A stretch of DNA of 22,987 nt. It comes from Terfezia claveryi (lineage: Eukaryota > Ascomycota > Pezizomycetes > Pezizales > Pezizaceae). The notes beneath the pieces are model-generated. The model was not told the DNA's origin, ran no database searches, and worked only from the letters and a program-made list of their open reading frames with translations. The translations under genes and the position numbers were made by a program. Positions 1 through 22,987 of this stretch are shown here, piece by piece. How positions within the stretch are numbered: the first letter of the stretch is position 1; each line of letters begins with the position of its first letter. The stretch is taken from NCBI GenBank assembly GCA_015179025.1, contig WHUX01000488.1, positions 1 through 22,987 on the forward strand. Reading direction: 5' to 3'.

Positions 1-2783
1 GATGTAGAACCCATTACCAGAACTGCTGACCCCGCCACTGACCCCCCTACCGACAGATGTCCATATACCACTGACGTCACTAGGTGGCCTTTCACCAGAT
101 ATCAGGCTGGACAGCCTGTACACAAGTATCCATTTGTGAATTAGCACTCAGCCAGGTACAATCACCTCTATATATTTCTCTACACATAGGATTATAAGCT
201 TCCCCGCTTTTTTATCCTTAGCAAGGTTCCAAAGCACAGGATTGATGGTTTCTTCTATGACAACTTATTACTGAGTACGCTCGGCATCAGTCTGACGTCA
301 AAGGTCTCGTTCAAATTGGGGTACACGTTATGGAAGCAAATGGACAAAATGGTTGCAGATCCTGAGTAGACTACAGGATCTGTGCAATATGCATTATGTC
401 TGAAGTCTGATTTCTACTATCGGAACATAGTAGATTGCATTAAATATCTCTTGCGGCAGAGAGTATTTGTGATCCATGTGGTCTGGGAACTAGTGAGGTT
501 ATTTAATAAGGATAACGACCGAATATATTCCGAGATGAACACCACAACCTAGTGGTGGGAGTAACAGGTATGTTCCCTAATTATCCTACCATGGCTCCTT
601 GCTTACATCTTAAAGAAGCTCATTTCCATCAGGTCTACACTGGTCCCCATCCTTTTGGCATCGGACCAGACCCATCTTACAAACTTTTCTAGGGACAAGA
701 AATTTTAGCCCATATACATGAGCATAGGGAACATCAAGTCCACCATACACAATAAACCAACTATGAATACTTGGATCCCAATTGTACTATTACCTATCCC
801 CCCTAAGTGTCTCGACAAGATTCCTGACAACCCAGTCAAAGCACAGGAATTGGACGCCCTCCAGGTCACATATGAGATTCTAAGTTTCATCCTCAGCCCT
901 TTGGCTGACGCAGGATGTTAGGAAGGGATAGAAATGGTCTGCTGTGATGAGAAGGTATGCAAATGTGTACCTAGACTCTCTGCCTGGTTGGCCGATCACA
1001 TGGAGAATGTCATGATTCATGGCATTCTCACCAATCGATGCCCAGTTTGCATTGCCCCCTCAAATAAATTTGGAGACCTCCCGGATATGCTACACAACCT
1101 CCAGCAACACTCCTGGTATGCCACCACATACCGCAAGTCCAACCAGGCCGTACTACAAACTGACAGAGTCAAGCAGATTAACAATGCCCTTTGGCATGTC
1201 CCTAACCTCGAACCCCATACACTTGTTCACAGGGATACATTACATATACTATATCTGGGGATGCTAAAACACTTGATGAAATGGATCCTACAATTCCTGG
1301 ATTACATTAGACGCCCTACGGTTTTCAATCATATTTGGTCCTGATTGCCACCATTCCCGAGGTTTATGAGACCAAACAAAGCATACCGATCTGTCTCCCA
1401 ATGGTAAGGGAAAGAAATGCAGAACCTACTACGGGTACTTTTAGCAGTATTTGCTGCTGTACTCAGTCGGACCTCCGATGCCCCTGCTCTTGCGACCTGA
1501 CATAAAGCATTATACCATAATACAATATTGTATGTTAGGTATATCACTGACTTTATCCTAATTGCACAGTACAAGGTCCACACCTCAGGAACGATCCAAT
1601 CAATGAAGGATTATCTTGAAGACTTCCACAAATACAAGGAACTATTTCTTCAGTTTCGAGCATCCAAGTCCTCTAAAGCTGCAGCAACGTTGGCATCGAA
1701 AGACCTCTAAGCAGAATATCTCTGACTGCTTGCGTCAGAGAAATTACGTCCAGCGACCCAAACAAAATGGTGGAAGCTATAGCAGGAGCTACTGGAAGAG
1801 GCAGAGGAATTGGTCTATGACATGCTGACTAGTGGGGTGCACTACAATTTTCCAAAAATATATTTGATTTCACATTTTGTGGATCAAATTGCAGAATATG
1901 GATCTCTGCCGCAATTTTTGACAGATATCTGTAAGGCTTTACATAAGCCTCTCAAGGATGGATACTGGCGGAGCAATTATGTCAATGCGGTACCTCAAGT
2001 GATTCATACACACGAGCATACAATTTCGCCATGCACGAGAAGAATATTGCCCAATAGGTCACAGAGCTTCCCCATATACCCGATGAAATACGAACTATCC
2101 TTCATCTGATAACATGGGGTATACATCTGCCGAGAGAAGCTGCCCCTGACCAGACTAGACATAAGTTGCAAGTGCCAATAAATACAAAAGATATACATAA
2201 TCTGCAAACATTGCAGACACTATACCAGCTACCCAACCTACTTAGTCTTACAAGCACCTTTCTTGCATGCAATTACCCCCAGTCCACCAACCTAGAATCT
2301 GACATTACACATTTACAACACACCCTGGTGGAGGTATTTAACACCCTCTAAGTCACAGTTCTCACATTTAATGATGATGAGTACATATTACACTATCTGT
2401 AGTATACTGGAGGTAAGTTCCGAAACCAAGATAAAAGACATGACTGGGTATTTGTTCGACAGTGCATGTCTGCACTAGGGAAAGCCCTTGGTGGACTTGA
2501 CGGCAGGGTTCCTGCCCAACTAAATTCCATGTTCAAACTGCGAGTAGGAAACAATGATACGTACCACCTTGCATATGTTTCACTAATGACAGTAGTCGGG
2601 TCATCGACGCCAGATGGCCTAGAGGGTATGGTGCGCGTCGGCTTGCCGAAGAAGAATCAGGTAATAAGAATTGCCGACATAGAGGGCATGGCCTATCTCA
2701 TCCCCTTTTCTGATCAAGAGCTTTACATTGTTAATAACTGTATTGATCTCCATACATGGAATGATATTCATAATAGAAACTAG
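1..2783 (+). pseudogene. Plavaka-type DNA transposase relic, 5' end outside window
   Basis: Fragments in all three plus frames read in order as one Plavaka (CACTA-related, fungal) transposase. Near 90-130 is the RYQAG-PVHKYPF segment; at 515-560 RIYSEMNTTT-WWE; at 640-720 PILLASDQTHLTNFSRDKK followed by PIYMSIGNIKSTI. At 934-1344 come LADHMENVMIHGI, NRCPVC, NNALWHVP and LHILYLGMLKHLMKWI, the most diagnostic block. At 1590-1710 are YKVHTSGTIQSMKDYLEDF and FLQFRASKSSK. The C-terminal domain at 2432-2783 reads RHDWVFVRQ, GGLDGRVPAQLNSMFKLR, HLAYVS, GMAYLIPF and ends at TAG. Many in-frame stops are TAG where Trp or Gln is expected (for example FxPIY near 706), so the gene is dead. Assignment is from remembered family motifs; the frame breaks and the order of blocks are seen directly. 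Confidence 0.8.
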
Positions 2784-3185: not shown

Positions 3186-3567
3186 GATGTAGCTGAATGC
3201 TTCAACTGAACAATACAGAATATGATGAGGGCTATGTTGACGAATATAGACAAAAGATTCTAGGCTGAAGCATGCTCAAGTTCAACCTATCTCCAAAATC
3301 GGTCACCTTATAGTGCTATTAAAGGGAAGACTCCCTACGAGGTCTTTTACAGCAATAAACCTACTATCTCTCACCTTCAACCTATCGGCAAGGAATGTTA
3401 TATACACATACCTAAGGAACGACAACCTGTGGACAGTAAACTCCTACCATGGGTTGAGAAAAGTATATTCATTGTTTATACTAATAGCACAGCTATCTAT
3501 AAGGTCCATGTACCTTCTAGAAAGCATACTTATACAGTTCGAGCATAAGATGTTTCTTTTGGACTGA
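3186..3567 (+). pseudogene. Ty1/copia integrase C-terminal fragment
   Basis: The reading begins abruptly with GVAE-like residues (Asp-Val-Ala-Glu-Cys-Phe-Asn, then TGA for Arg). This is the segment carrying the last acidic residue of the integrase D,D-35-E triad, Glu at 3195-3197. It continues TIQNMMRAML, KRF then TAG (Trp expected) AEA, YLQNRSPYSAIKGKTPYEVFY, then KPTISHLQPIGKECYIHIPKE and PWVEKSIFIVYTNSTAIYKVHVPS. The first part of the integrase, Gag, protease and 5' LTR are absent, and the cut lies exactly at the oligo-T end of the Plavaka flank. TGA for Arg (CGA) and TAG for Trp are C-to-T type changes. Confidence 0.85.
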
Positions 3568-4228
3568 GTACAATTCTAGAAGGGGTACCTCTACCTACAT
3601 CTAACTTGACTAATCTATCACAGTTACCAACTACGAATACTCCTCCTCCTACTGCTTCTCCACTTGAAGTAATCCCATACACTAGCTCAGAATTTCCAAA
3701 CAAATATTTCTAGCAACAATGGTATATACGAAATCTAAAACAAGCAGAAGAATGGTATTTCAAGGGACACCCACTCGTTCATGAAGCATGGTTCCCTGGT
3801 ATGACTCTTTCCCACCTGACTGAAACAATATCGGACACAACTACTTCCTCACTATCTATTCCTCTAACATTAACTGCAATGTTATCTTCCCCTCCACTAG
3901 CTTCTGAACCTATTTCCAAACCAACTCCACAAGTTCACTTACCTCTTCCACCTCAAAATCGAGATAAATATTTATTACTTAATTTACTTCCTCAAGACCT
4001 TTGACAATCTTTACCCGATGACTCTAACGATGGAAACTTCACCCAAATCGTTAGCGGAAAAATAGTTAGACTTACAACCATTACTAAGGCAGGTCAAGCT
4101 GTTTTTAAGACAATTAAATTCGGAACTGCACAAGCTCCTATTGTCCTTATAATTGGTACAAAGATACAGTTTGATAGTCATTCTAGATTAATCGAAGACC
4201 CACCTGAAGTCATTGATGAGGATAATGA
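3568..4228 (+). other. Degenerate copia integrase-RT linker
   Basis: Between the integrase and the reverse transcriptase the sequence is low-complexity, rich in Ser, Thr and Pro codons (for example 3640-3660 and 3800-3990). That fits the variable linker of copia Pol proteins. Frames change several times and no domain is recognisable. The segment 4160-4228 becomes acidic (EDPPEVIDEDNEED) just before the RT, as is common in these elements. Confidence 0.5.
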
Positions 4229-5840
4229 AGAAGATAAAGTATTGATTGCTTTAGTCTTATAACATGGTAATGAACCTCAAACCTTTAAACACTGGCAGGT
4301 TCTTAATTCACCTGATAAAGAAAAATGGAGAAAGGCTATGAGCGATGAGTTGGAAGCTATGAAGGATCAAGATGTTTAGAAAGTGTTTCCAACACTATAG
4401 GATAGGAATATTATAGGAAGCAAGTGGGTATTTAAGATTAAGCGAGATGCTAATAGGAATATTGATCGGTACAAGGCTCGTCTAGTTGCACAAGGTTTCT
4501 CACAACAACCCAACATAGACTTTGATGAAATCTTTTCTCCTGTTGTCCGATATAACTCTCTTCACCTTCTCATTGCTTTATCTGCCCACTTCTAATGGGA
4601 ACCTCAACAAATGGATATCAAAGCAGCCTTCCTTTACGGCTCTTTGAATGAAATTATCTACATGCATCTCCTAGAAAGCACCTGTATTGATGGCATATGT
4701 GCTAAACTTAACTGATCTATTTATGGATTAAAGCAGTCTCCTCGTCAGTGGTATGGATGATTAATATCTTTTCTCCTGACAATATTTTTCTCTGCTTGTG
4801 CCTTTAACCCCTATGTCTTTGTCCATAAGTCTGGCACAATTATACTCACCCTTTATGTCAACGATATTACTCTATTCGGATATAAAGACTTAGCCATTAT
4901 GAAGTCTACCAAACAGTCACTCAAATGAGAGTTTAAGTTAACTGATATGGGTAACTTACATTGGCTTCTAGGAATTGGAATTGAGTACTCTAAGCATAGT
5001 ATCACACTATCCCAATCCTTCTATATCGACAAGATCCTTGAATGTTTCAGTATGATGGACTGTAATTCCATCACTCTTCCTCTTGACTCAAACCATACTC
5101 TTAGACAATACACAGATAAAGATGAGGTTACTGACATCTCCCTCTATCAACAAATTATTGGATCACTCATGTATGCAGTTATTGGCACACGTCCTGACCT
5201 GGCTTACTCTATAATTGTTATCTTACAATTCTCTCACAAACCATTGAAGGATTACCTTGGAGCAGTTAAACGTATCCTACGCTACCTTATAGGTGCTTGC
5301 GAACTTACCTTGACCTACAAACTCAGACAACTTCTTTCACTCGAAGAATTTACTGATTAAGACTTTGCTAGATGTCATAACACTTAATGGTCGACCTTAG
5401 GATATATCTACAAGCTCGCCTCTTGTACCATCTGCTGGAGATCACAAAAACAAAAATGCGTGACAATCTCTACTACTGATGCAAAATACATTGCTAGTTC
5501 CACTACTGCTAAACAACAAATTTGGCTTCAGAATGCATTAAGTGAGCTCTCTATCAAAGATATTCTCTCGGCCCTCTCTTGTAACAATAACAGCTCTATC
5601 GACCTGTCTCATAATCCTCAAATCTCCGATAAGTTAAAGCATATTGACATTACTTACCACTTCGTCTGCAAACTTATTAACTCTAGTACTATCATACTGT
5701 TACACATTCCTGGTGAACACAACCCTGTGGATATATATACAAAAGCCTTTCCTGGTCTACAGTTCTTGTATCTCAAAGGATTAATCATAAGATTTCAAGT
5801 TAGAAAGAGTATTGAAAATAAACATTTCCTTTTGATATAG
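4229..5840 (+). pseudogene. Ty1/copia reverse transcriptase and RNase H relic
   Basis: One plus frame carries the copia RT with stops: KEKWRKAMSDELEAMKDQDV (4318-4377), GSKWVFKIKRDANRNIDRYK, ARLVAQGFSQQPNIDFDEIF (4474-4533), MDIKAAFLYGSLNE, SIYGLKQSPRQWY, then the catalytic box reading YVND at 4854-4865 where the family has YVDD, so catalysis is lost. The RT connection continues open from 4947 (LHWLLGIGIEYSK, LYQQIIGSLMYA, TRPDLAYSI). RNase H follows with STTDAKYIASSTTAKQQIWL at 5463, DKLKHIDITYHFV and PVDIYTKAF near 5725-5750, ending at TAG 5838. Stops include TGA for Arg at 4711, 4756 and 4926 and TAA for Gln near 4593. Family assignment is firm; the copy is inactive. Confidence 0.9.
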
Positions 5841-9323: not shown

Positions 9324-10865
9324 AGGCTCATGCCTTCTCTATATATGATGTAAACCTGGAAATCAATAGGACAAGGTCCAAAGAAGAATAAAAGTCTATG
9401 GTCCTAGATGAATATCACCAGTTTCTTGACCTGTTCTCGAAAAAGGTCGCAGAAAAGCTTGCCCCCCATTGACCATATGACCACACAATTCCACTGATAG
9501 AAGGTTAAATCTCTCCCTATGGGCCTCTCTATGGAATATTCCAGGTAGAGTTGGAAGTCTTGAAAAAATATTTAGAGGAAAATCTTAAAAAGAACTTCAT
9601 TCGCTATAGCTCCTCACTAGTGGGTACCCCTGTGCTATTTGTGAAGAAGTCAGATGGCTCTCTTTAGTTGTGTGTAAATTATCATAGCCTGAACAAATTA
9701 ATAGTTAAGAACAGATACCTCTTGCCCCTAATATAGGAGACGTTAGCTAGGCTTTCCAAGGCAAAATGGTTCACTAAATTGGATCTGAGAGGGGCTTATA
9801 ACCTGGTACAGATTGCTAAGGGGGAGGAGTAGAAAATAGCCTTCCGGACACATTATGGCCACTTTGAGTACAACATCATATCCTTCAGCTTAACCAATGC
9901 CCCGGTCTTCTTCCAATACTTAATCAATGACACCTTACGAGACTTCCTAGATGTATTCTATATGGCTTACTTAGATAATATCCTAATCTATTCAGATACA
10001 CTAGCAGAGCACAAAATCCATGTTCGACAAGTCCTAGAAAAGCTGAAACAAGTAGGGTTGTACTTAAAGCCCAAGAAATATGAATTCCATATCCAAAAGG
10101 TGAAGTATCTGGGCTTAATAATCATAACTGAAGGTATCAGAATAAATGCTGCAAAAGTCATGGCAATCCAGGAATGGGAAATCACTACCAATTTCAAGGA
10201 CATGCAGGCCTTCCTGGGTTTTGCCAACTTCTATCGCCAGTTCATTCTGGGATATTCGAAGATCGTGGCAATATTGATAGCATTAACCAAGACCAAGGGT
10301 ATTAAAAGAGGCTAATACTTCTAGTAGAGTCTAGAAGCCTAGTCTCTCTTTGAGAAGCTCAAGGAAGAATTCTGCTCAGCCTCAATCCTTACCCACTTTG
10401 ACACTAACAGTAAGTGTATCATAGAAACAGATGCCTCTGATTATGTGTCTGCCGGAATCCTGTCCCAGTATGTCAATAGTATTCTCCACCCAGTAGCCTA
10501 TTTCTCCAAAAAGCACACTCCAGCAGAGTGTAATTACAAAATCTATAATAAGAAGTTAATGGCTATTGTACAAGCATTTAAGGAATGGAGGCCTAACTTG
10601 GAATCAGTAAAGGGAATCATAGAGGTTCTCTCAGATCACAAGAACCTGTAGTACTTCATAACCACCAAATTGCTGAACTGCTTATAGGCTAAGTAGTTGG
10701 AATTCCTTTCTCGGTTTAACTTTAAGATCAGATACCGTTCCGGGAATGCTGGTAGCAAGCTAGATACATTGACTAGGAGATCAGGAAACCTCCCTAAAGG
10801 AGGAGATGAAAGGCTAAAATACCAGAATCAGGTGGTACTAAAGCCGGAAAATCTCAATATAGCCA
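9324..10865 (+). pseudogene. Gypsy copy A reverse transcriptase and RNase H
   Basis: Gypsy RT in order: DHTIPLIEG (9481-9507), [20 protein letters not shown] (9520-9579), [20 protein letters not shown] (9598-9657), KNRYLLPLI, AKWFTKLDLRGAYNLVQIA (9760-9816), and the catalytic box at 9968-9979. The box reads YLDN instead of YLDD. Then come [34 protein letters not shown] and [13 protein letters not shown]. RNase H reads [17 protein letters not shown] at 10425-10475, [17 protein letters not shown] and VLSDHKNL at 10627-10650. Many TAG codons replace Gln/Trp (for example 9829, where copy B has TGG). The reading ends at 10865 against copy B's LTR. Confidence 0.85.
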
Positions 10866-11769: not shown

Positions 11770-12870
11770 GGAGGGGGTGAGGGGTCCTTTTGCCTGGGAG
11801 GGGATTGTTGGCGGCTGGTTCAATCTCCGAGATGTGAACGACCGGGTAGCATTTGATGTCTTTAGGGAACTTCAACTGGTAGGCACGAGTGCCCACATTC
11901 CCCAATATCTCATACGGCCCTAGAACTTATGATCCAGATTACGAGAAGGTCATTCTGTCCGGAAGTGCTAGTTGGAGAGCCATACCTTATCTCCTGGCTG
12001 ATACATAGAGGCTGGCAACCATGATCCGTTGGTATACTCCACTTGCCTGGCTTGAGCATATACCAGTTTGGCTCTTAAGGTAGAGTACATCTCAGCAATT
12101 TCCATAGTGAACTACTTAGCTGGAGTGTTCTCCCTAGCCTTGTACAGGGGTGCTAGGGAGTCCACGAAACGAGGGTGCCAGCCATAATTGGCTAGAAATA
12201 GGGAGGTTTTTAGAGTCTCCAAGAAATGGTTGTTAGCAGTGAACTCACAGGTTGCCAGCAGCGAAACCCAGTTGTTTTGCTGGTAATTGATATATGCTCT
12301 CAGGTACTGCTCCATGATTGTATTCATTCGCTCAGACTGACCATCTGTTTGGGGGTGATACACTATGGAGAGGTGTATGTTGATTCCCAGAAGCTCGCAG
12401 AATACCTTCTAGAAGTTCGAGACAAATTAGGGGCCACGATCCGAGACGACTGACTTGGGGAGACCATAGTAGTAGAATATATAGTTGAGGTAGAGGCCGA
12501 CGAGGTCCCAGGCTGAACAGGTATCATGGCAAGGTATAACATGCCTCATTTTGGTCAATCGGTCTACTACCATAAGAATAGTATTAACCCCCGAATCCTC
12601 CAGCAACCCAGTCACAAAGTCTATGGTTAGGTGTTGCCAAGGTTAGTCTGGGATTTCCAGGGGCTTCAGAGTCCTATAAGGAGCATAACAGGTAGGCTTA
12701 GCATGCTTGTAAATATAGCAGTTCTATATGTACCGCTCTACCTCCTTCTATTGGTCAAACCATATATATTGCCTAGCTAGCAGCTCTAATGTTTTAGCTA
12801 CCCCAGGATGACCCGCAGCTAGGGTATCATGGTGTTCCTTGATCAGCTACATCTACAACTCCCCTTCAGG
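11770..12870 (-). pseudogene. Gypsy copy B integrase
   Basis: Reading down from 12850 the zinc-binding region gives HHDTLAAGHPGVAKTLELLA. The knuckle's second Cys reads Tyr (NCYIYKHAK near 12705-12730), so zinc binding is impaired. The core follows: VVDRLTKMRHVIPCH (first Asp, near 12570), GLPKSVVSDRGP (second Asp, near 12440), and YHPQTDGQSERMN at 12360-12320 carrying the catalytic Glu, so the D,D,E residues are present. NYQQNNWVSLLATCEFTANN and PRFVDSL follow at 12290-12150. The C-terminal part reads KFPKDIKCYPVVHISEIEPA near 11870-11815. TAG codons at Trp/Gln positions interrupt it. Confidence 0.85.
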
Positions 12871-13034
12871 TATATAGAGCCAATTTAGGTAGTATAGGAG
12901 GCCATCCTGAGTGGTGCACTTGGCTCGGGAAATCTTGGTATAACGGAGCTGTCTAGACTCCACTGTGGCGATTATATCCTTAACTAGGTTATCCTCTGCA
13001 TATGCCCGTCGTATCCACAGAAGGAGATCTGCTC

Positions 13035-13140
13035 CGGGGTTCGCTTCAGCTTTAGCATCAGCCTCAGTATCAGTATCAGTATCAGCATTAGTATCAGCAT
13101 TAGCATCAGCATCAGTATCAGCATCAGCATCAGCTATAGC
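13035..13140 (-). repeat. In-frame Ala-Asp/Thr-Asp repeat in the RNase H-integrase linker
   Basis: On the minus strand about 16 imperfect six-base units (GCTGAT, ACTGAT, GCTAAT, GCTGAG) code AlaAsp, ThrAsp, AlaAsn and AlaGlu dipeptides. They sit in the same frame as the integrase N-terminal segment (12853-13185). At the equivalent place in copy A the sequence stops at copy B's LTR, so the repeat cannot be compared. The opposite strand gives a Ser-Ala/Ser-Val artefact. Confidence 0.8.
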
Positions 13141-13189
13141 AAGGCTATTGGCTGCCAGGTTGAGATTTTCAGGTTTTAGTACCACCTGA

Positions 13190-13763
13190 TTTTGGTACTT
13201 CAGCCTTTCATCCCCCCCTTTAGGGAGGTCTTCTGATCTCCTGGTCAGTGCGTCCGGCTTACCCCTAGCTTTTTCAGGCCGATACTTGATCTTGAAGTTG
13301 AATCAAGATAAGAACTCCAACCACCTAGCCTGCCGTCGGTTCAGCAGCTTAGTAGTGGTGAAGTACTCAAGATTCTTATAATCGGATAGCACCTTAATGA
13401 TCCTCTTGGCTGACTCTAGGTAAGGCCTCCATTCCTCAAAAGCTCAGACAATAGCCATTAATTCCTTATCATAGATCTCGTAATTACACTCCACTAGAGA
13501 GTGCTTTTTGTAGAAATAGGCCACTAGGTGGAGGACTCCATTGACATACTAGGACAGGATTCTGGCAGAGACATAGTCGGAGGCATCCGTTTCCATGATA
13601 CACTCACTATCGGGATCAAAGTAGGCCAGTATAGGTGCTAAGCAGAAGGCTTTCTTGAGGTTCTAGAAGGTGGATTGGGCTTCTGGACTCCAGTGGAATC
13701 GCCGGTCTTTTTTGGTCAGGGCTATGAGGGGGTCACGATCTTGGAATATCCTAGAATGAACCG
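13190..13763 (-). pseudogene. Gypsy copy B RNase H
   Basis: Minus-strand reading gives [17 protein letters not shown] near 13610-13560 (first catalytic Asp present), [26 protein letters not shown] (Glu present), [34 protein letters not shown] and ARWLEFLS. It ends KPDALTRRSEDLPKG near 13205-13260. TAG at Gln and TGA at Arg break it. Corresponding copy A blocks are at 10370-10800. Confidence 0.8.
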
Positions 13764-14660
13764 TCAGTAGAAGTTGGCGAATCCTAGGAAGGCCTGAACA
13801 TCCTTGAGATTTGCTGGGATTTCCCATTCCTGAACAGTAGTGACCTTAGTGGGGTCCATTCTAATACCTTCTGTGGTAATGATCAACCCTAGATACTTAA
13901 CCTCCTGTACATGGAATTCACATTTCTTGGGCTTAAGGTACAACCCAGCTTGCTCCAGCTTCTCCAATACCTGCTGGACATGAATTTTGTGCTCTGCAAG
14001 GGTATCTGAATAAATCAAGAGATCATCGAGGTAGGCCGTGCAGAACACATCCAGAAAGTCCAATAAGGTGTCATTGATAAAGTGCTGGAAGGAGGTAGGG
14101 GCGTTGGTTAGGCCAAAGGGCATGACCTTGTACTCGAAGTAGCCATAACGTATCCGGAAGGCCGTTTTCCACTCCCCCCTTCAGCAATCAGTACTAGGTT
14201 GTACACCCCTCATAAGTCCAATTTTGTGAACCATTTTGCCTTGGAAACCCTGGCTAATGTCTCCTGGATTAGAGGCAGGGATACCTGTTCTTGACCGTTA
14301 TCTCATCCAGCCCCTGAGAGTCCACATATAGCCTAAGAGAACTATCCAATTTCTTGACAAATAGCACCGGAGCGCCCGCTGGTGAAGAGCTGTGGCAATA
14401 AAGCTCTTGTTGAGGGTTTCCTCCAAGTACTTCTTCAAAGCTTCCAGCTCTAACTGGGACATTCCGTAGAGGGGCCCATAGGGAGGGGTCTTACCCTCTA
14501 TCAGTGGAATAGTATGGTCATAGGGTTGGTGGGGTGTGAGTTTCTCCGCATCCTTTTCCGAGAACAGATCAATGAACTCGTGGTATTCATCCGGAACCAG
14601 GGACTTCCACTCCTCCTTAGGCCGCATCTTATTGATCTCCAGGTTCACCTCATATATAGA
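13764..14660 (-). pseudogene. Gypsy copy B reverse transcriptase
   Basis: From 14660 downward: [70 protein letters not shown] frame break follows near 14405-14420, after which the other frame continues [14 protein letters not shown]. The palm is open from 14123 to 13764: [20 protein letters not shown], then [14 protein letters not shown] with intact catalytic YLDD at 14022-14033, [20 protein letters not shown] and [11 protein letters not shown]. The catalytic box is preserved here and lost in copy A, which fits copy B being younger. Confidence 0.88.
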
Positions 14661-14731
14661 CAGGGCATGAGCCTTCAGCTTGTGCCTTCTGGTAAGGTAA
14701 GTGAAAGCCCCTGCTCCGATGAAGCTAACAT

Positions 14732-15433
14732 TCAGAGGTTTTTGGGGACTGGGGCATAGAGAGGACAGGGGAAACCGGGGCACAGGGGAACTGAGGGCAA
14801 AGGGGAAACTGGGAGCATAGGGGAAACCGGGGGAATGGTCGCATTGATGTGTGCAGGTGGGAGTACTACCTGAGTTGGGTGGATTATTGGGGTAGCAATA
14901 CGCACAGCCCAGTAACAGTGGTTTTTGGATCCCAACAGTGTTTTTTGCAATAAGGACTGTTGAATTGCAAGGTATAAGAGCCGAAGCTGACTGATACATC
15001 GTGCATCCTGAGCCAGGGGATCCCAAGGACAATTGGGTACTTTAGCTTGGTTACGAATATTGGGAGATCTTCTGAGTGGTCACCCATAGCGCTGGGCAGG
15101 CACGCGAGGTCGGTAATCGCCCCAAAAGAGATAGAGTGGCCGTCGATAACATCAAGAAGGTGGGAAGTCCTTAGCTTGGAGGTTGGTATAGAGTTTTTAC
15201 TAACGAAGGTCTGGTCAATGAATGCTAATCCTGAAGCACCACAATCTATGAAAGCTGATGTAACCACTGTTTTATCATTGAACTTGATAGATATAGGTAC
15301 AACAAAGTGCTCGCCAAACAGGCGAGAGTTATCAACAGACATAGATGTAGGCAAAGAAAATACAGACAAAGATAAATAATCTGGAGCAGGTCCCTTGCTA
15401 GTGTCAGTAACTAGGTAAGGAACTCTCCTTTTC
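14732..15433 (-). pseudogene. Gypsy copy B protease and Pro/Val-rich linker
   Basis: Open from 15369 to 14884. GEHFVVPISIKFNDKT precedes the active-site segment AFIDCGASG (Asp-Cys-Gly-Ala at 15235-15246). Later come KYPIVLGIPWLRMHDVSVSF and GSYTLQF. This is a retropepsin-like protease with Cys in place of the usual Ser/Thr after Asp. The frame continues upstream without a start codon through VTDTSKGP, overlapping Gag's stop in the -1 frame. The linker at 14767-14836 is a purine-rich imperfect repeat on the plus strand coding Pro/Val/Ser-rich peptide. Confidence 0.8.
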
Positions 15434-16580
15434 TCAACTCTTCAACCTCTTCGATCTGTGCTTCTGAGATGGCATGAACAGCTAGGGAGCGGTTTTTTCG
15501 GAGGAGACATGCCGCAACAAAGTGGTCCTCTTTTCTACATGCAATGCCCAACCCATTAGTGCGGCGTCGGTCCCTTTCCTCCTGGGTTAGTCGAGGCCTT
15601 TCTAATGATATGTCTATAGGGGTGGGTCCTCCTGCCACTAATGATAGATGTGCTAGTTTATTGGCAGGGGCCTGAGCTATTTTGGTGGCATGGTATTGCT
15701 GAGGCTAGGGTTGTAGGAAACAGGGTGCTGGCCGGAACGTGGGGTAGTTGCGGAGCCGGGACATCCACTATTCCACCCGGGAAGCCTGGTCAATCAATTC
15801 GTCAAGAGTTTTGGCTTTCGGGAGGCTGACCATGGCCTGCTGGATTTTGTCATTTAGCCCTTCCTAGAATTGCTCCAGTTTGGACTGGTCTTTTCATCGG
15901 ACTTCCGCCACTAGTCTTGAGAATTCTGCCACATAAGTGGACAGATCGGTGTTTTTCTGCCTGAGGGTTCGGAGGGCCCTACTGGCAGTGCCAACGGCAT
16001 TAGGGTCCCCGAACGCCCTATTCAGGATTGTGAAAAGGGCCGAGATATCGTCAAACTTGATCCCGGTTTCGAGGACATATGGCTAGATATGGTCACAAGC
16101 TTTTTCCTCCAGCAAGGTGAAAACGTATGCCAGTTGATGTTGTTCCGATGGGAACCTAGCAGAATCACCATTCACCTTGAGATTGACAGCATTTTTTCAG
16201 GCTTGTAGGCAAATCTGATCCCTATTGAACTTGAGGGGAGTCAGGATGCTTTCGGTCTTGTTGTTACTGGCTGCTGTTGTTGTTGGTATTGCTAGGTTTG
16301 CTAGGGCCCAGCTAAGGTTTTGAACCGTGGTCCTTTCAGTGGCTAGGGCAAGGTTCACATGGTTGAGATCAGTCTAGAGGATCGTGATCTCTTCGTCGGC
16401 GGATCTCAATTTTCGTTCAGCCACGGCCAGGCTGTTGCCGAGTTCGGCCCCGATAGCATCCATGGCCTCGAAAATGTCCATGATTTATCGACGGTAGGCA
16501 TTCAACTCGTTCAAGCCTGAGGGTATGGGGGAGCTCCTCCAGGTTTGAAACCTGACAGTGAGTGGAGGGGTTCTGGACAT
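15411..16580 (-). pseudogene. Gypsy copy B Gag
   Basis: One frame of 390 codons from ATG (16580-16578) to TAG (15413-15411), broken by several in-frame stops (first TAA at 16487-16485). Residues about 40-110 look helical (AERKLRSADEEITIL, NLALATERTTVQNL). The Gag core reads LTPLKFNRDQ, FPSEQHQLAY, TLRQKNTDLSTYVAEFSRL and EGLNDKIQQAM. The C-terminus has a zinc knuckle whose first Cys has become Gly (LGIACRKEDHFVAAC near 15550-15505). Copy A retains all four ligands. Gag forms the particle and binds RNA through the knuckle. Confidence 0.88.
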
Positions 16581-16616: not shown

Positions 16617-16974
16617 TGCAACGATGGCTCTGGAGACAAGGCAACTAAGGGGTATGCTAGAGCAAGGGCAAGGCTAGGGTAATACACATGTAGGAACATT
16701 ATATGTATGACTAGGGGAAAAGGAAGGGTGGGGATAAGGGTGCGGGCGAGAGAGGCAAATAGGAGTAGTAGGAGGCAGCAGGGATGCAGAGACAAGACAA
16801 AGCAAGGCAAAGACAGGAGGTTTGTAGGGTAGGCAGTAGGGCTACAGAATCGAGGCAAGACAAGAAGGTGCACAAGGGAGATGCACCAACATGAAGAGAA
16901 GCAAGGCCTTGTATTGGATATACAAGACGTTAGATGGGGATCCAACGAGAGGGCAGAGAGAGCAAGCTATATAT
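16617..16974 (-). repeat. Gypsy copy B 5' LTR, truncated
   Basis: Matches 10866-11221 of the 3' LTR. On the minus strand it ends ...GTTGCA at 16617, followed by CTACGTTGGATCC leading to Gag's ATG 37 bases downstream. The first about 158 bases of the LTR (with the TG end and both hairpins) are replaced at 16975 by unrelated terminal-repeat sequence. The displaced LTR part is not found elsewhere in the window. Confidence 0.85.
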
Positions 16975-17131
16975 AGTGTGCGCACCGAGGCGATTTTTCC
17001 CCGCGCTGCCTCGCCAAGACTCGCGCCGACGGCCAAGTTTTGCCCAAGCCTCCAAATAGGCGAGTCGGCTATATGTCGCTCTGAATTACTCGAGCCAGCG
17101 CTGAGTAGCCGTCGACTACTTGCCAAGCCTT
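16975..17131 (+). mobile_element. Terminal inverted repeat of a MULE-like element
   Basis: Begins AGTGTGCGCACCGAGGCG. Its full 157 bases match the reverse complement of 8041-8205 (for example CGAGTCGGCTATATG, TTTTGCCCAAGC, CTACTTGCCAAGCCTT) and more loosely 7444-7586. It is thus the end sequence of the foldback element in gag, here GC-richer and apparently less mutated. It interrupts copy B's LTR; the flanking 9 bases (GCTATATAT, 16966-16974) should be repeated at the other end, which is not in the window. The similarity ends after CCAAGCCTT. It is either a lone TIR fragment or the left end of a larger element that contains the following region. Confidence 0.7.
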
Positions 17132-17415
17132 AGTGTCATCTACTGACGCATATTGCTCGACTGGAGGACCAGTTTCTCATATAATTCGGTTCAAATTTAA
17201 CTGAACACACCATGGATTGCTTGGATTAAAGCGATTCATTTTATGAGAATCAGAGTGTGCAGAAATTGATGAGGTATCAACGAATATAATTCACATTAGC
17301 ACGCAAGGCAGGGTAAGATTATACAGGAAAATGACGGGGGAATGGACGGAAGGTTAGCCACTAGTAGAATGCAGTTGAGAAATGGCGGTAAGGATTGAGC
17401 GGGAAGGAAAAGTTC

Positions 17416-17566
17416 AAGTCCATGACAGGAGGAGGAATCCATGACAGGCGGGGCAATCCGTAACAGGAGGACGGATCTGTGACAGGAGGACTGATCCGTG
17501 GTTATGGAATCGTCGCCATTTCTCACTGTCCTATAGTCGTCACGGAATTGCCTCAAGTTGTCACAG
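17416..17566 (+). repeat. 19-bp tandem array with ATCCGTGACA core, plus inverted copies
   Basis: Five copies start at 17416, 17435, 17454, 17473 and 17492, exactly 19 bases apart, with consensus ATCCRTGACAGGAGGA. Two more copies of the core in reverse orientation (GTCACGGAATT at 17539, GTCACAGAATT at 17560) are 21 bases apart. The array lies downstream (relative to the minus strand) of the H3-like gene. The core is shared with the arrays at 19322, 21054 and 21219. Confidence 0.85.
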
Positions 17567-17653
17567 AATTGTCTATTCTGGCAAATTACGTTTCACCCAG
17601 ATTGTGAGCTCTCCTAACATTCCATTTCCTACCATCACAACTTAATATAACCT

Positions 17654-17676
17654 AAAAAAAAAAAAAAAAAAAAAAA
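17654..17676. repeat. Poly(A) run of 23
   Basis: 23 consecutive A residues. It may be a simple homopolymer or a retroposition scar; no target duplication or LINE sequence was seen beside it. Confidence 0.9.
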
Positions 17677-17722
17677 CGGAGCTGATAGCAAGATATCTAT
17701 CCCCCAAATACATAACACAACC

Positions 17723-18763
17723 CTAAAAAATAACCCTATAGAAAAAGTCAAATGCCCTACTCCTGGCCTCTTCCTTCCGTTCCCCATACATCGTCAGAAC
17801 GCGATGACAATGTAGGCGATGCCAGCAGTGTAGGTCATACTGGAGGTGCAAGTGGTGCCGGCGAAGCAGGTGGTATCGCCAGTGAAGGAGGTGTTGCAGG
17901 AGATCTCGGGGCACTAACTGATGCCGGCAAAGGAGGAGTTGCAGGAGATGGCGGGGCACCAACTGATGCCGGTGATCTAGTCGACGGCGAAACTGATGGT
18001 GACGGTGAAGACGATAATTCTGATGATGATGATGATGAGGGTGATGATGGTAATGACGGTGATGATGAGGAGGATGATGAGGAGGATGATGAGGAGGATG
18101 ATGTGGGCGATGGTAGTACTGGTGGTACTTGGGGTGCGGGGCGGTGGTCACATTACCTCCAGATAGCCGATTGGCTTCCACCTGATGCCACAACACCACA
18201 TCCCTTCGTAGAATTGTTTGGCGTGGTGGGTTTTGGTCTCCGCTCTGTGTTGCATACAGGTTGATTGCTATTTCATACACCTGGTTAGTCTCACCCTGAC
18301 CTTCTCATGGTATATGCTTTATTACTTGTCAAAGGTTAATGGAGGTATGCCTCCGTAGCCTCTTGGAGGGCATTTGTTGCTATGATGCCAATTCTCTCCA
18401 CATTTGTCCGCCCACCGAGTATCGTAGGATAACTATTGTATTTAGTGTTAACATCCTATACGATCTCTCGATATAACCGTCGGAACGCAGTCTTCGGAAT
18501 GATTAATTGACTGCTGGCCTGTTGTCTCCGAATTTGTCTAATAATTGCCACTGACAGCAAACTTAGCATTCCAAGTTCAAATTGAACTGGAGGGAGTTGT
18601 TAGGCTGATCCACCCTTCTCTTTCGTGGGACTACCCTTTTCTTTTTGTGGAGTACCCTTTTCTTTTTGGGGAGTACCCCTCTCTTTTTTGGGACCACTGT
18701 AGGTACTCTCACAGGGGATACTATCGTCTTGATATTCCTAGCTCATTGTTTCGTTCCGGCCAT
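17723..18763 (-). pseudogene. Histone H3-like protein gene, decayed
   Basis: Minus strand. From ATG at 18763: MAGTKQ, TGA, ARNIK, close to H3's MARTKQTAR. Then comes a Lys/Arg-rich tail of PKKKRVL-like heptads (frame open to 18563). A second frame, 18551-18336, reads VAIIRQIRRQQASS (alphaN), PKTAFRRLYREIV, TAG, DV (alpha1; H3 has FQRLVREIAQD), a loop of about 20 residues, then ALQEATEAYL (alpha2; H3 has ALQEASEAYL). A third block, 18279-18151, reads YEIAINLYATQ then RQTILRRDVVLWHQVEANRL (alpha3). The breaks between blocks could be introns or frameshifts; no clean splice pair was proven. The C-terminal extension (to 17757 or 17723) is low-complexity and its frame is uncertain. Loop 1 is about 14 residues longer than in H3. 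Stops at 18745 (TGA), 18458 (TAG) and 18338 (TAA) are C-to-T type. A CENP-A-like origin is possible. Homology is likely; function is unknown. Confidence 0.75.
18618..18694 (-). repeat. 21-bp tandem repeat coding basic heptads of the H3-like tail
   Basis: About three and a half units of 21 bp (minus strand GGGTACTCCCCAAAAAGAAA and variants) code GVLPKKK, RVLHKKK and RVVPRKR. Period 21 keeps the frame. The heptads resemble monopartite nuclear localisation signals and give the tail a histone-like positive charge. On the plus strand the same DNA gives an unlikely Phe/Tyr-rich peptide. Confidence 0.75.
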
Positions 18764-19039
18764 TATATCTGTGTATTCGGGGGTACAAAAGAGTAAGTGT
18801 AATATCCACTGACTGAAGGTTGCAAATCGAAGGATCTGAGGTTTGGGATAGTAAGTTTGCTTGTATATGTATGTTCTCGAGGGCACGAAGTGGACGAAAA
18901 ATAGACTGATCTCAAGCATTGAGCTCTACAACAAAGTATAATTCATTGTTTATCTGCATCCCCATCTGTTAGCTCACTTATAACAAAGGGAGTAACAAAA
19001 AAACGTTACCTTAGTGTTACGCCATATTAGCCTGTTTAT

Positions 19040-19240
19040 ATCAAAAAAAACAAACAAGGAAAATACCCCGTAGAGATACACATAATTCTAAAACAAATAC
19101 CCCCTAGCGTGCTCAGTTGACATCAAAAAAATATACAAAGAAAATATCTCTCGCATACGCCATAGACATCCAAAAACAACACAAAAACGAAATACCCCTT
19201 GCTTCAGGCTGTAGTCATCCAACAAACATACAAGCAAAGA
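19040..19240. repeat. Degenerate 40-49 bp tandem repeat, A-rich
   Basis: About five units start near 19040, 19082, 19122, 19168 and 19217. Each has ATCAAAAAAA or ATCCAAAAAC, then ACAAAGAAAATACCCC or a variant, then a GC-richer tail (CTAGCGTGCTCAG, TCGCATACGCCATAG, TTGCTTCAGGCTGTAG). It lies upstream of the H3-like gene between its ATG and the 18-bp array. Confidence 0.65.
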
Positions 19241-19321
19241 TGCAATAAAATACACAATCAAACACAAAAGTAGTAGATACAATTAAACCTTAGAAAATTG
19301 TTAACGAACGACCATTCATGG

Positions 19322-19411
19322 CATCTGTGACAAGTTCTCCATCCGTGACAAGTTTTCCATCCGTAACAAGTTTTCCATCCGTGACATGTTTTCCATCCGT
19401 GACACTTAAAA
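19322..19411 (+). repeat. 18-bp tandem array with CATCCGTGACA core
   Basis: Five units start at 19322, 19340, 19358, 19376 and 19394, exactly 18 bases apart, consensus CATCCGTGACAAGTTTTC. It begins 30 bases beyond the stop codon of the unknown minus-strand gene (19441) and lies upstream of the H3-like gene. Differences between units are C/T and G/A (ATCTGTG, CCGTAAC), as elsewhere in the window. Confidence 0.9.
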
Positions 19412-19440
19412 GAAATCCAAATTAGTTCCCATTCTCCTCC

Positions 19441-20994
19441 CTAGTTTGCTTCTTCCCCATCCTCACTGTAATTGTCACCTTCATCATCATACTCACCCTC
19501 ATCCTCATCTGCTGGCTCATCTTTCTCCCCATCATTGCCTGCGACTTCTTCTCGCTTTGTCATCTTTATTGTTGTCGCTTGTTGTCATCGCAGCACCTTG
19601 ATGTAAAATCCGCTGATATACTTGTTCATTGACTTCACAATCTTCTCCTCGGTGGAATCCCTATAGTCCCCATCTTGGTGTCGCTTAGAAGCGATTCGGC
19701 AGGCCTATCTCCACTAGGTACTGACAACGCCTTTCCCCATTTGCTAGGAGTCGGATTCAGTTGATTGAGCTTCTTCTTCTGAAGAACCCTCCGAAGCTAC
19801 CCATCGGCCCCATAGTCCTGTATCTTGTCATCATCTTCCTTGTTGGGTTTGTCATCGTAGTCCTATCTACTTGTGAGTAAAGTTCTCAGATTTAGATCAA
19901 GCACGAGGAAGCACCTACCTCTTCAATATCCGTCCCAATGTCCTCATCACTTAAGCAATCGTCGGCACCCCCCTCAGCCAACTCCTCTTGTATAGTCTGT
20001 ATCCTGCTATCAATTGCTAGTGGTGTGTTGGGCCCTGTATCACTAGTCCCGTACCCAGACACTGTGTCACGTTCGGTTGGCTTATCAAATCGGGCATAGG
20101 CTTGGCGGTTGATCGGCACAACGCTAATGACCACTGCGAATTGCTGCACTGGCTTTACCCCTATTGCTTCCAACTCAGCATTGGGAATTTTGAATTCGGG
20201 GAGTCTTCTTGCTCCTGTAATTCCAAATAGACTCACTTCTGCTCGTCGGATAGCTGATGCCACTGGTACAAAATATATGCCTTTTTGCGGATAAATATCA
20301 GATCGCAAGTCCTTGGAACCAGTCGTTCAAAGTTGCCTCGTTCCACATCGGTTAACGAGGCCCTTCGGGTGCCTATTGCCCTTCCAGTAGTAGTGGCGTG
20401 TTCGGCCTCCTTAATCCCTGCTTTGAGCACCCTGTTTACCTTTTGCCTTTTCCAGTCCTTGGCCCGCTCCCACGACAGCGGGGGTCCAAGCAGTTTCTTG
20501 TGTGTTTCTCGAATTTTTTTCGTATGGGGATTAGTTGAGGTGCCCCATGCCTTCTCCCCCCACTAAATTCTGTGTCTGGATTAAACTCTCGAGGGCCCCA
20601 TGGGAAGTCGGCATATTTGGCATAAAGATTCTTTGGAACATCCTCGGCAAGTTCGGCTCTTGGCGTGCTTCTTGTTGGAACATCTGCAATTGGGGGTGGG
20701 TAGAAGGCTAGTTCGGCTCTTGTCCTTCTCCTTGTTGGAACATCCTCAACTGGGGGTGGGATGAGGGCTAGTTCGGCTCTTGTCCTTCTTCTTGGAACAT
20801 CCTAATTGGGTGAGCTAATTCTGCTCTTGTCTTCCTTTTTTGGGGAACATGCTCTGTGTGAGTTGTCGGCGTCTTCGGACCGGGCTGGCTGGCGCTCCTA
20901 GGGTTGTCTTTCTTTTTTTCTGCATGGGAGGTTCTGGTGCCTGGCTGGTTGGCGCTTTACCAGTTGTCTTTTTCTTCTCAGGATGGTTTGGCAT
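19441..20994 (-). pseudogene. Decayed gene of unknown family with repeats and acidic tail
   Basis: Not recognised. Coding-like blocks follow in order on the minus strand. A basic, Pro/Lys-rich start is at 20994 (MPNHPEKKKTTGKAPTSQAP). A repeat of about 20 residues follows (next entry), then NLYAKYADFPWGPREFNPD near 20630-20570. The block 20490-20233 has KDWKRQKVNRVLKAGIKEAE, GRAIGTRRASLTDVERGNF and ERLVPRTCDLIFIRKKAYIL, and ends just before a GTGAGT (possible 5' splice site). An open frame 20308-19892 follows, ending DEDIGTDIEE before GTAGGT, another splice-like site. Then comes a block with STEEKIVKSMNKYISGFYIK near 19660-19600 and an acidic tail ending DNYSEDGEEAN, TAG at 19441. Frame changes near A-runs (about 20515, 20910) and several TAG/TGA show decay or sequence errors. 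Exon structure is uncertain. Confidence 0.5.
20641..20870 (-). repeat. 60-bp tandem repeat coding a 20-residue unit
   Basis: Three units of close to 60 bp (starting near 20641, 20701 and 20761 on the plus strand) and a shorter fourth. On the minus strand each codes a version of DVPTRRRTRAELA followed by LIPPPVE, FYPPPIA or similar; the first unit in protein order is EHVPQKRKTRAELAHPIR. The frame is kept across the last three units and broken between the first and second. Confidence 0.8.
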
Positions 20995-21053
20995 TGCGAA
21001 TACTTAAACACAAACTTCGTCAGTAGTCTTTCCACTTTGGGCTCAACCTCGTT

Positions 21054-21099
21054 CCCTTGACACGACCTCTGTACACCTCTATGACAACCTCCGTGACAC
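21054..21099 (+). repeat. Degenerate 12-bp array related to CCTCCGTGACA
   Basis: Units start at 21054, 21066, 21076 and 21088: CCCTTGACACGA, CCTCTGTACA, CCTCTATGACAA, CCTCCGTGACAC. It lies 60-100 bases upstream of the ATG (20994) of the unknown minus-strand gene. Same core as the other arrays. Confidence 0.65.
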
Positions 21100-21218
21100 G
21101 ATTTTGTAAAACATACGTCTTGGTTCTGCTAGTTATTTAGAGGGAATGTCTGTGATTGAGATAAATGATAGTCAGTGAATAAGCTAACTATCATTCGACT
21201 TCAAATTTCTGGACACGA

Positions 21219-21294
21219 CCTCCATCACAGCCTCTGTGACATCCTCCGTGACGGCCTCCGTGACATCCTCCGTGACGGCCTCCGTGACATGGCT
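21219..21294 (+). repeat. 12-bp tandem array CCTCCGTGACRK
   Basis: Six units at 21219, 21231, 21243, 21255, 21267 and 21279, exactly 12 bases apart, alternating CCTCCGTGACAT-like and CCTCCGTGACGG, which gives a 24-bp higher-order period. It lies upstream of the unknown minus-strand gene and downstream of the reading frame at 21937-21467. The first unit is degenerate (CCTCCATCACAG). Confidence 0.9.
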
Positions 21295-21466
21295 TTGGAA
21301 CACATACCCTCTTCGTTATCTTACTGCAGATTATATAGATAGAAATCACCGTTGAAGCGCTGACGATTCCTTGGAATTTGCAGATAAATAGAAGATGACC
21401 ACCAAAAACCTCTGTTCGTGCAAATAAAGGAATTCATTCTTTGTTTACAAGCAAACCTGGATGCCA

Positions 21467-21937
21467 TTAACTGAACACGGGCACGTGACTAGCATCACCA
21501 CGATGCGTGTACCCATCATTGTGAATTTTACCTGTAGTCAAGTCTACGCATGAATATATTGGTGGTTTAATTTTGGTTAATATGGAACGATATCGGCCAA
21601 AATGAAAATCAGAAGAGCCTGGCCCAATGTCAATAGTAAGACTTCCCCCCACAGCGACCTCCTCCATGGCTCCTGCTTCCTGCTACCTTTGCCATCGCTT
21701 TTGTTTGGAACATAGGCGTCGCCGGGATGACCGCTCTTGAGACCTACCTTGCCCTTCTTGGGTTAATAATGGGGGGGGGTCAAATGATGGGGAAGGTTGT
21801 TTAGGTTGGGAATGTTCAAATGGCGAGTATGGGGATTGCCTGGGACTTGGACTAACAAAGAGAGGCTTCTCATTCTCTTTGTTTTCAACCCCTGGCTCAG
21901 GATTGTCCTCCTGCATCTCCACCACTAGTTCCTGCAA
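21467..21937 (-). pseudogene. Unknown Pro/Ser-rich protein frame with one internal TAG
   Basis: One minus-strand frame of about 157 codons, interrupted only by a TAG at 21685-21683 (QR, stop, QEAGAMEEV). Residues 1-80 are acidic then Pro/Ser-rich (NKENEKPLFVSPSPRQSPYS) and end in a basic stretch (SSRRRLCSKQKRW). After the TAG comes a more ordered segment (MEEVAVGGSLTIDIGPGSSD, HFGRYRSILTKIKPPIYSCV). No family recognised. There is no convincing start; an upstream TGA precedes a TTG, and the first ATG is eight codons into the frame. CAG-to-TAG mutation would explain the stop. Confidence 0.4.
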
Positions 21938-22733
21938 AACCCCCTCTCATTATCTCCTTCAGTTTCGGCTTCACTAGGGGTGGCTGGCACCTCTACCGTT
22001 GGACAACGTGACTGATTTGCACTCGGTATCGGGTTTGATAATCACTAAAGTTTGGGTAAAAGGAATTTGCTGCAAGCCAGTAATGCCATGTCAAATCAAG
22101 TGTGAGTTACCACACAATACTGCTATACGTCCTTTTCCTGTTCCTCACCGCAGATCAGTTTCCAGCAGGAGGAACCACATGACCTTGCGGCACATGTGTT
22201 TTCCACGCGCTTCAAACATGACCTGCTCAAGGTAACAGGAAAATAACAATTATCGTCATCTGTTCAGTGGAACCGCGCAAAATGGGACAAGCCCACATGG
22301 CTATCGCACTTACTCAAATAACACGGGACATGTACGCAACATCATATGGGGCAAGCAAAAAAGTATGGAAGTCATACCTTGACCCTGGAATTTCACCTCT
22401 TTGCCTGATAGTCAAATTAGCTGGCATACTTTCTTGTGGTATAGTAATAAAGGATAGGAGGTGCTTGATGCGGAATGACAAAAGGCTAGGGAGATGCAGA
22501 TAATGGAGGACAGAAGTTAATCGAGTGGTAGGAGGTGGGGACACGTGGAATTTATCTGGCCCCAGCAGACCCTGGCCTAAGCTACTGCCCCAAAACATCT
22601 CTAGTTACTCCCTGAGACATCCCTAAGTATGTGTTACCTGTTTCGGAACTGGCTTGGCTTGACCCAGACCCCTTGACCCATTGTACCTCACAAGGAGGCT
22701 CATGCAAGCAGACTACCTATACCTCTGCAAGTG
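21938..22733. other. No recognisable gene
   Basis: Short open frames on both strands (22267-22503 plus, 22314-22598 minus, 21999-22235 plus) overlap each other and show no motif, repeat or bias that would favour one of them. Nothing else is evident. Confidence 0.4.
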
Positions 22734-22934
22734 ATGAACGACATTATTGCTAGTAGAGCAATTGATGGGTCGATGAGATGTGAACGACTAGACTATATCA
22801 GGATTAATGATGCTTTTGAGAAGATGCATTGACCATTATCACATGAGACAGATAGAACGCTTCACCCAGCCTACCTTCTACTGGCTAAACTAACTCTTAT
22901 AGTATACAACAAAGTGTATCAGTACATGCCTTAA
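22734..22934 (+). pseudogene. Coding-like remnant of unknown family
   Basis: From ATG 22734 the plus frame reads MNDIIASRAIDGSMRCERLD, YIRINDAFEKMH, TGA (22830-22832; CGA-to-TGA would fit), PLSHETDRTLHPAYLLLAKL, TLIVYNKVYQYMP, then TAA. Composition is protein-like (balanced Ile/Leu, charged helices) and unlike the low-complexity frames around it, but I do not recognise the family. The match between the single stop and the C-to-T pattern of the window is suggestive only. Confidence 0.35.
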
Positions 22935-22987
22935 CCTCAACTACATAGGTTGACAATAACCAGTCCATCCCATTGACCAGTCAATCG

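What the first reader, a model, noticed from the sequence alone, without database searches (positions are those of the whole stretch)
18148..18763. Histone H3-like gene in transposon-rich, C-to-T mutated DNA
Seen: a minus-strand series reads like histone H3 from N-terminus to alpha3: MAGTKQ-stop-AR; a basic tail of PKKKRVL heptads; RQIRRQQASS; FRRLYREIV-stop-DV; ALQEATEAYL; RQTILRRDVVLW. H3 has MARTKQTAR, REIRRYQKST, FQRLVREIAQD, ALQEASEAYL and RVTIMPKDIQL at the same places. Loop 1 is about 14 residues longer than in H3. All three stops inside the homologous part are C-to-T type. RIP-like mutation hits repeated DNA, so this gene was probably multi-copy. That raises the possibility of a histone variant gene carried by a mobile element. 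I do not know of such a described system. The link to a mobile element is inference.
Basis: partly seen in the sequence, partly recalled or inferred. Interest (0 to 1): 0.95.

Follow-up and report, generated by a model that had tools for sequence, protein, structure and literature searches.

The report
Jumping gene with its own histone
What is very likely a desert-truffle genome holds about a hundred full or partial copies of a histone H3 gene that rides on a jumping gene (a hAT DNA transposon) and shows the marks of natural selection, and this histone likely lets the element wrap itself in chromatin that the host would find hard to mark for silencing.

Summary
Window 17723-18763 (-) is a decayed histone H3-like gene, three exons by prediction, 0.75 kb inside the right end (16974) of a hAT transposon that runs off the contig. 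The genome, very likely Terfezia claveryi, has at least 103 such loci, some partial. Complete elements (11.6-12.6 kb) have inverted ends, 8-bp target duplications, a hAT transposase on the opposite strand, a second gene of unknown family ('gene 2') and the H3-like gene. The spliced H3-like protein scores 45 bits on the core-histone model and groups apart from host H3 and CENP-A. Between subfamilies dN/dS is 0.08-0.18 where dS is measurable, so it is not a recent passenger. No readable tail has an ARKS motif; in subfamily A the residue at H3K9 is Asn. My favoured, untested mechanism: element-encoded chromatin that resists H3K9-based silencing, perhaps loaded by the gene-2 protein. H3-like genes in hAT elements are in print for Dothideomycetes (Manning 2013; Dhillon 2019), read there as captured host genes; the Pyrenophora element also has a 'central ORF'. 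New here: an old, intron-bearing, selected H3 lineage with a conserved partner gene, in Pezizomycetes. New variant of a known kind.

The parts
16974..22987 (-). Body of a hAT element of subfamily Aa, from its right end to the end of the contig; the transposase half lies beyond the contig
   Evidence: homology to other copies stops at 16974 and runs to the contig end against L011; contig length is 22,987
16974..16995 (-). Right terminal inverted repeat, reads TAGTGTGCGCACCGAGGCGATT on the + strand
   Evidence: shared end in 19 copies inspected, 12 exactly GCGCACACTA; left ends of the three complete elements start TAGTGTG
18604..18763 (-). H3-like gene, predicted exon 1: basic tail starting MAGTKQ, one stop
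18551..18603 (-). Predicted intron 1 (53 bases); acceptor CAG kept in 21 of 23 copies, donor lost in the window copy
18326..18550 (-). Predicted exon 2: alpha-N, alpha-1, loop 1 (14 residues longer than H3), alpha-2; two stops
   Evidence: PF00125 match 18339-18539
18268..18325 (-). Predicted intron 2 (58 bases), donor GTAATA, acceptor TAG, CTAAC branch-like motif
17723..18267 (-). Predicted exon 3: alpha-3 (to about 18152), then a His/Pro-rich C-terminal tail
   Evidence: open frame of 193 aa at 17723-18304; match 18152-18274
19892..20801 (-). Remnant of gene 2 in three overlapping frames (20436-20801, 20233-20562, 19892-20326)
   Evidence: match 20158-20625, 54% identity, E 5.9e-49, four stops; ORFs

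Best explanation
The window holds one decayed copy of a hAT DNA transposon that carries a divergent histone H3 gene (three exons by prediction, at least 103 matching loci in this genome), and the element likely uses that histone to build nucleosomes which the host's H3K9-based silencing would not mark. Shown by sequence: hAT ends, target duplications and transposase; H3 homology; a single H3 group; purifying selection between subfamilies; no ARKS motif in the readable tails; a second gene that travels with it. Inferred: that the protein is made, pairs with host H4, is deposited on element DNA, and that the gene-2 protein (basic tail, helical core, acidic tail) helps to load it. The H3K4 context ARTKQ is kept in subfamilies Ab and B, so active marks would still be possible.
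For: Three complete elements with inverted ends and 8-bp duplications; hAT dimerisation domain 9.7e-12; H3 gene and gene 2 linked in 67 of 103 H3 loci, transposase in 44 of 103, mirror controls 2, 1 and 4. dN/dS 0.08-0.18 in the four cross-subfamily pairs with measurable dS; gene 2 0.19 and transposase 0.08-0.14. H3-like rows form one group, 100/99. Tail: ARK[ST] in 0 of 21 readable tails, Asn at position 9 in 8 of 8 A rows; the host H3 has ARKS. Other fungal DNA transposons carry TET/JBP genes, also in Pezizomycetes (PMC12730594, passages), so epigenetic cargo is a known strategy.
Against: No expression, binding or chromatin data. Subfamily B has a Lys at position 9 in 12 of 13 rows, only its context differs. 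Subfamily Ac and the metagenome relatives lack ARTKQ. The loop-1 and loop-2 insertions and the lost K56 may prevent normal nucleosomes. Most listed copies are damaged or partial, and near-identical copies show dN/dS about 1. Whether this host has H3K9 or DNA methyltransferases was asked but not answered.
Confidence: 0.42

Rival explanations
1. Passenger: a host H3 gene captured by the transposon (transduplication) and amplified without use for the element, then inactivated by RIP-like mutation.
For: This is how both published cases are read (PMC3538342, PMC6710886). Many copies are decayed (14 of 33 Pfam matches with stops); a near-identical pair has dN/dS about 1.
Against: dN/dS 0.08-0.18 between subfamilies with dS of 0.94-1.97; only 37-44% core identity to the host H3; introns at places where the host H3 has none; one H3 group that includes other genomes; a co-conserved second gene.
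Confidence: 0.15
2. The H3-like protein serves transposition itself: a DNA-bending or end-bridging part of the transposase complex, or an aid to insertion into chosen chromatin, rather than a silencing shield.
For: It travels with the transposase under selection; the strongly altered loops and tails suggest a role other than bulk chromatin.
Against: The H3 tail start MARTKQ and the alpha-1/alpha-2 core are kept, which a mere DNA binder would not need.
Confidence: 0.2
3. Interference: the protein acts on host chromatin at large, as a competitor of H3 or CENP-A, for instance by taking up H4 or chaperones or by seeding centromere-like chromatin on the element.
For: Longer loop 1 and divergent tail are also features of CENP-A (recalled); many loci could give a high dose.
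Against: The tree puts it apart from CENP-A, the host's included. Broad poisoning of the host would be selected against (inference).
Confidence: 0.12

Closest known systems
hAT element with H3L in Pyrenophora tritici-repentis (Manning et al. 2013, PMC3538342; passages read)
   Same: TIR-bounded hAT element with three genes: transposase, an ORF of unknown function and an H3-like gene; multi-copy; ESTs for the H3-like gene
   Different: 5.6 kb, 26 nearly identical H3L genes (recent), H3L closest to bona fide H3; here 11.6-12.6 kb, several old subfamilies, loop insertions, no ARKS, selection shown. Homology of the two middle genes was not tested
H3-carrying hAT elements of Pseudocercospora fijiensis and five other Mycosphaerellaceae (Dhillon et al. 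2019, PMC6710886; abstract, section 4 and part 1 of section 10 read)
   Same: hAT element with 8-bp TSD, hundreds of H3-like copies, RIP-like decay; one of two H3-like copies per element has a 16-residue insertion; 51-55% identity to the host H3 coding sequence
   Different: read as an intronless captured transcript with no other domains, all copies dead; here introns, intact copies, purifying selection and a partner gene
Fungal DNA transposons that encode TET/JBP dioxygenases (Kojima 2025, PMC12730594; passages read)
   Same: DNA transposons, some in Pezizomycetes and some hAT, with an epigenetic gene as regular cargo
   Different: an enzyme acting on methylcytosine, not a histone
Virus-encoded histones (review PMC9145170; search listing only)
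   Same: a mobile genome with its own histone genes
   Different: viruses, not transposons

Membership tests
hAT superfamily | 8-bp target site duplication | tested here: met
   L009 AAAGTAGT 8 of 8; L014 TGAGTATT 8 of 8 but in a simple-repeat flank; L015 7 of 8. Not seen for the window copy, whose left end is missing
hAT superfamily | short terminal inverted repeats | tested here: met
hAT superfamily | transposase with hAT dimerisation domain | tested here: met
   PF05699 9.7e-12, 45 bits, in L029:5351-5830(-) of the complete element L029-L014; no Pfam hit over its cut-off in the other transposase pieces tested
core histone H3 | histone-fold profile match over alpha-N to alpha-3 | tested here: met
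   spliced L008 45.6 bits and L014 44.9 bits, cut-off 26.4; H3 chains best in PDB
core histone H3 | canonical tail with ARKS motifs and H3 loop lengths | tested here: not met
   ARK[ST] in 0 of 21 readable tails; loop 1 14 residues longer, insertion before alpha-3
core histone H3 | forms nucleosomes with H4 | not testable with these tools
   needs biochemistry
CENP-A | groups with CENP-A rather than H3 | tested here: not met
   tree of 21 rows: H3-like group 100/99 apart from both; most other forks unresolved (12 of 18 open)
CENP-A | sits at centromeres | not testable with these tools
   needs chromatin profiling
recently captured host H3 (transduplication) | close to the host H3, with host introns or none | tested here: not met
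   37-44% core identity; two introns at other places than the host's three
Pyrenophora-type hAT with central ORF and H3L | gene plan transposase, unknown ORF, H3-like | tested here: met
   against the description
Pyrenophora-type hAT with central ORF and H3L | homologous central ORF and H3L | not tested
   the published sequences were not at hand

The most novel reading that the evidence does not exclude
A deep class of hAT transposons makes its own chromatin: transposase, a dedicated H3 variant that cannot carry the H3K9 silencing mark, and a dedicated acidic-tailed chaperone (gene 2) form one old module; the H3-bearing hAT elements of Dothideomycetes, published as captures of host H3, are members of the same class.
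Probability: 0.25. Interest if true: 0.92.

Novelty: new variant of a known kind. Interest (0 to 1): 0.72.

Why it matters
Silencing of transposons rests on marking their nucleosomes. An element that brings its own H3, without the main silencing residue in one subfamily group and without its sequence context in the other, would evade the mark at its substrate; I recall no transposon described as doing so. It would also recast two published 'captured housekeeping gene' cases as possible members of an old, selected system, and it offers natural H3 proteins with K4 but no K9 for chromatin biochemistry.

Tried and rejected

Limits of the counts: the 103 H3-like, 90 gene-2 and 105 transposase loci were typed from the listed rows and merged. 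I left out the host CENP-A row, further pieces of the same copies and about three weak transposase rows; 13 distant hAT rows were set apart as a control. Some of the 103 are partial; four rest on exon 3 alone. The first looks were capped and end with 'more matches are not listed', so the numbers are lower bounds. The tail count used a start pattern that itself asks for Lys at K4, so K4 is not an independent count there; a few of the 21 tails are frameshifted before their end.

Unexplained: L009 and L023 differ little in the transposase (dS 0.32) but much in gene 2 (dS 1.43). Either the cargo half is exchanged between elements or the transposase 13 kb from the L023 copy belongs to another element.

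After it I re-counted ends and distances and mended the pLDDT range, the count of exon-3-only loci and the CpG/CpA statement.

Full report
What the window is. The window is a whole 22,987-base contig (C432) of a 72.6-Mb eukaryotic genome in 794 contigs. Proteins named as Terfezia claveryi lie on contigs of 310,300, 141,316 and 41,026 bases (P0090, P0091, P0011), exactly the lengths of C512, C45 and C274 here, so the host is very likely T. claveryi, a desert truffle (Pezizomycetes).

The gene. On the minus strand an exon with a basic tail (18763-18604), an exon with alpha-N, alpha-1, loop 1 and alpha-2 (18550-18326) and an exon with alpha-3 (from 18267) are joined by two predicted introns of 53 and 58 bases with fungal-type sites. 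A relative, L008, is open through all three exons (333 aa). Its histone part scores 45.6 bits on PF00125, that of subfamily B (L014) 44.9 (cut-off 26.4), and solved H3 chains are the best PDB matches. The window copy has three stops in the histone part and a lost donor site. In the Pfam search of the genome 33 of 40 matches belong to this family, 19 of the 33 without a stop in the matched stretch; the other seven are the host CENP-A, the host H3 and five matches that I did not study.

The element. Homology between copies stops sharply 1.2-2.4 kb downstream of the start of the H3 core. Of 19 copies inspected, 12 end with exactly GCGCACACTA and 7 with a variant, followed by differing DNA. Two complete B elements (12.6 kb; L014, L015) and one complete A element (11.6 kb; L009) have inverted ends and 8-bp duplications: TGAGTATT, 8 of 8 but in a simple-repeat flank; AGGACTTC/T, 7 of 8; AAAGTAGT, 8 of 8. 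The other end of the element codes, on the opposite strand, for a hAT transposase with the dimerisation domain. In the window the right end is at 16974 and the transposase half lies beyond the contig.

The linkage. Merging the own-genome searches gives 103 H3-like loci, 90 gene-2 loci and 105 transposase loci, all lower bounds. Gene 2 lies upstream of H3 on the same strand in 67 of 103 (56 of the 67 at 1.3-1.9 kb); the transposase lies upstream on the other strand within 20 kb in 44 of 103 (21 of the 44 at 7.3-8.7 kb); both in 38. Mirror-image controls give 2, 1 and 4 of 103. So 36 of 103 H3 loci have no gene 2 and 59 no transposase at the expected place; many lie near contig ends or are partial, but I did not sort these cases. 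Seen from the transposase, 53 of 105 have H3 or gene 2 on the expected side and 6 of 105 on the other; 0 of 13 distant hAT transposase loci have either within 20 kb. In another genome a gene-2 protein (P0080) and a decayed H3-like protein (P0097) are both listed with a 17,257-base contig, so they are probably linked there too. Gene 2 has named homologues in T. boudieri and Tirmania nivea.

Age and selection. Exon 2 compared between subfamilies gives dN/dS 0.09 (L008-L037), 0.08 (L008-L023), 0.18 (L008-L009) and 0.18 (L037-L014), with dS 0.94-1.97. In three further cross-subfamily pairs dS was saturated, and the within-subfamily pair L023-L037 had five nonsynonymous and no synonymous changes. 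Third positions carry 31 of 49 changes in the first pair. A near-identical pair (L008-L041) gives about 1, which fits decay after insertion. Gene 2 gives 0.19 in the one of three pairs with measurable dS, the transposase 0.08, 0.09 and 0.14. In a tree of 21 rows the element's four H3 subfamilies and two metagenome relatives form one group (100/99), apart from H3 and CENP-A; 12 of 18 inner branches are unresolved. Core identity to the host H3 is 37-44% and to the host CENP-A 36-38%. The host H3 has three introns at other places.

Tail. In 21 of 23 copies the start was located, by a pattern that itself asks for Lys at K4; of the other two, L028 keeps the region with a changed start and L022 gave no match. 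None of the 21 has ARK[ST]; the host H3 has ARK twice, once as ARKS. Subfamily A (8 of 8 rows) has Asn at position 9; B has Lys there in 12 of 13, in the context PKKN or LKKN. That H3K9 enzymes need the ARKS context is recalled knowledge. At the K56 position A has Ala, Gly or Phe and B Arg (H3 numbering recalled).

Gene 2. The L014 copy is a 356-aa open frame; homologues of 196-465 aa are listed. They have a basic N-terminal tail, a conserved helical core and, in full-length Terfezia and Tirmania proteins, an acidic C-terminal tail. The model of P0072 has mean pLDDT 56 and pTM 0.44; block means are 66-92 over residues 111-230. No Pfam family and no fold match worth the name. The charge pattern is what suggests a histone chaperone; this is inference.

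Mutation. C-to-T changes outnumber the reverse (window 20 against 3; L010 42 against 2; L020 60 against 0). Rates are highest at CpG and CpA. The L028 row is misaligned in part (215 transversions) and I set it aside; L008 and L014 have no C-to-T change from the consensus.

What is known. Manning et al. [quoted passage not shown] Dhillon et al. 2019 describe H3-like sequences in hAT elements of six Mycosphaerellaceae, intronless and, extra copies, all RIP-inactivated, one of two copies per element with a 16-residue insertion, and only 51-55% identical to the host H3 coding sequence (section 4; section 10 in part). That low identity and the insertion make me suspect that those, too, belong to an old element-borne lineage; I could not test it. 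So 'hAT with H3' is a known kind. What is new is a selected, intron-bearing H3 lineage with a conserved partner gene in Pezizomycetes, and the loss of the silencing motifs.

Verdict. Identity as a hAT-borne H3 variant: near certain. That selection has kept the gene as part of the element: likely. That it works by making chromatin that resists K9 methylation: my best single guess, untested.

Noticed in passing
window 922-1344 (+): Fragment of a Plavaka transposase (PF18759, 1.9e-20), a group reported elsewhere with TET/JBP genes in fungi.
   Followed up: no
window 3264-5840 (+), 9833-10315 (+), 12112-15441 (-): Decayed LTR retrotransposons: a Copia-like one (RVT_2 5.5e-7 just under its cut-off, SH3_retrovirus 9.4e-12) and two with RVT_1 (1e-17, 5e-25) that look Gypsy-like.
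   Followed up: partly
L009/L031 against L023/L032: Transposase parts are close (dS 0.32) while gene 2 is far (dS 1.43), as if cargo and transposase halves had different histories.
   Followed up: no
P0124 (Orbilia oligospora), P0176 (Colletotrichum), P0160 (Tricladium): Other divergent fungal H3-like proteins; long branches outside the element group. Whether they sit in transposons was not looked at.
   Followed up: partly
L008, L014, L023 exon 3: The C-terminal tails after the histone fold differ wholly in composition between subfamilies, His/Pro-rich in Aa and other low-complexity sequence in Ab and B.
   Followed up: no
L009 and L015 flanks, L031: A second H3-like locus in the opposite orientation lies about 10.6 kb from the L009 copy (C512:165888-166127), just outside its left end.
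   Followed up: no
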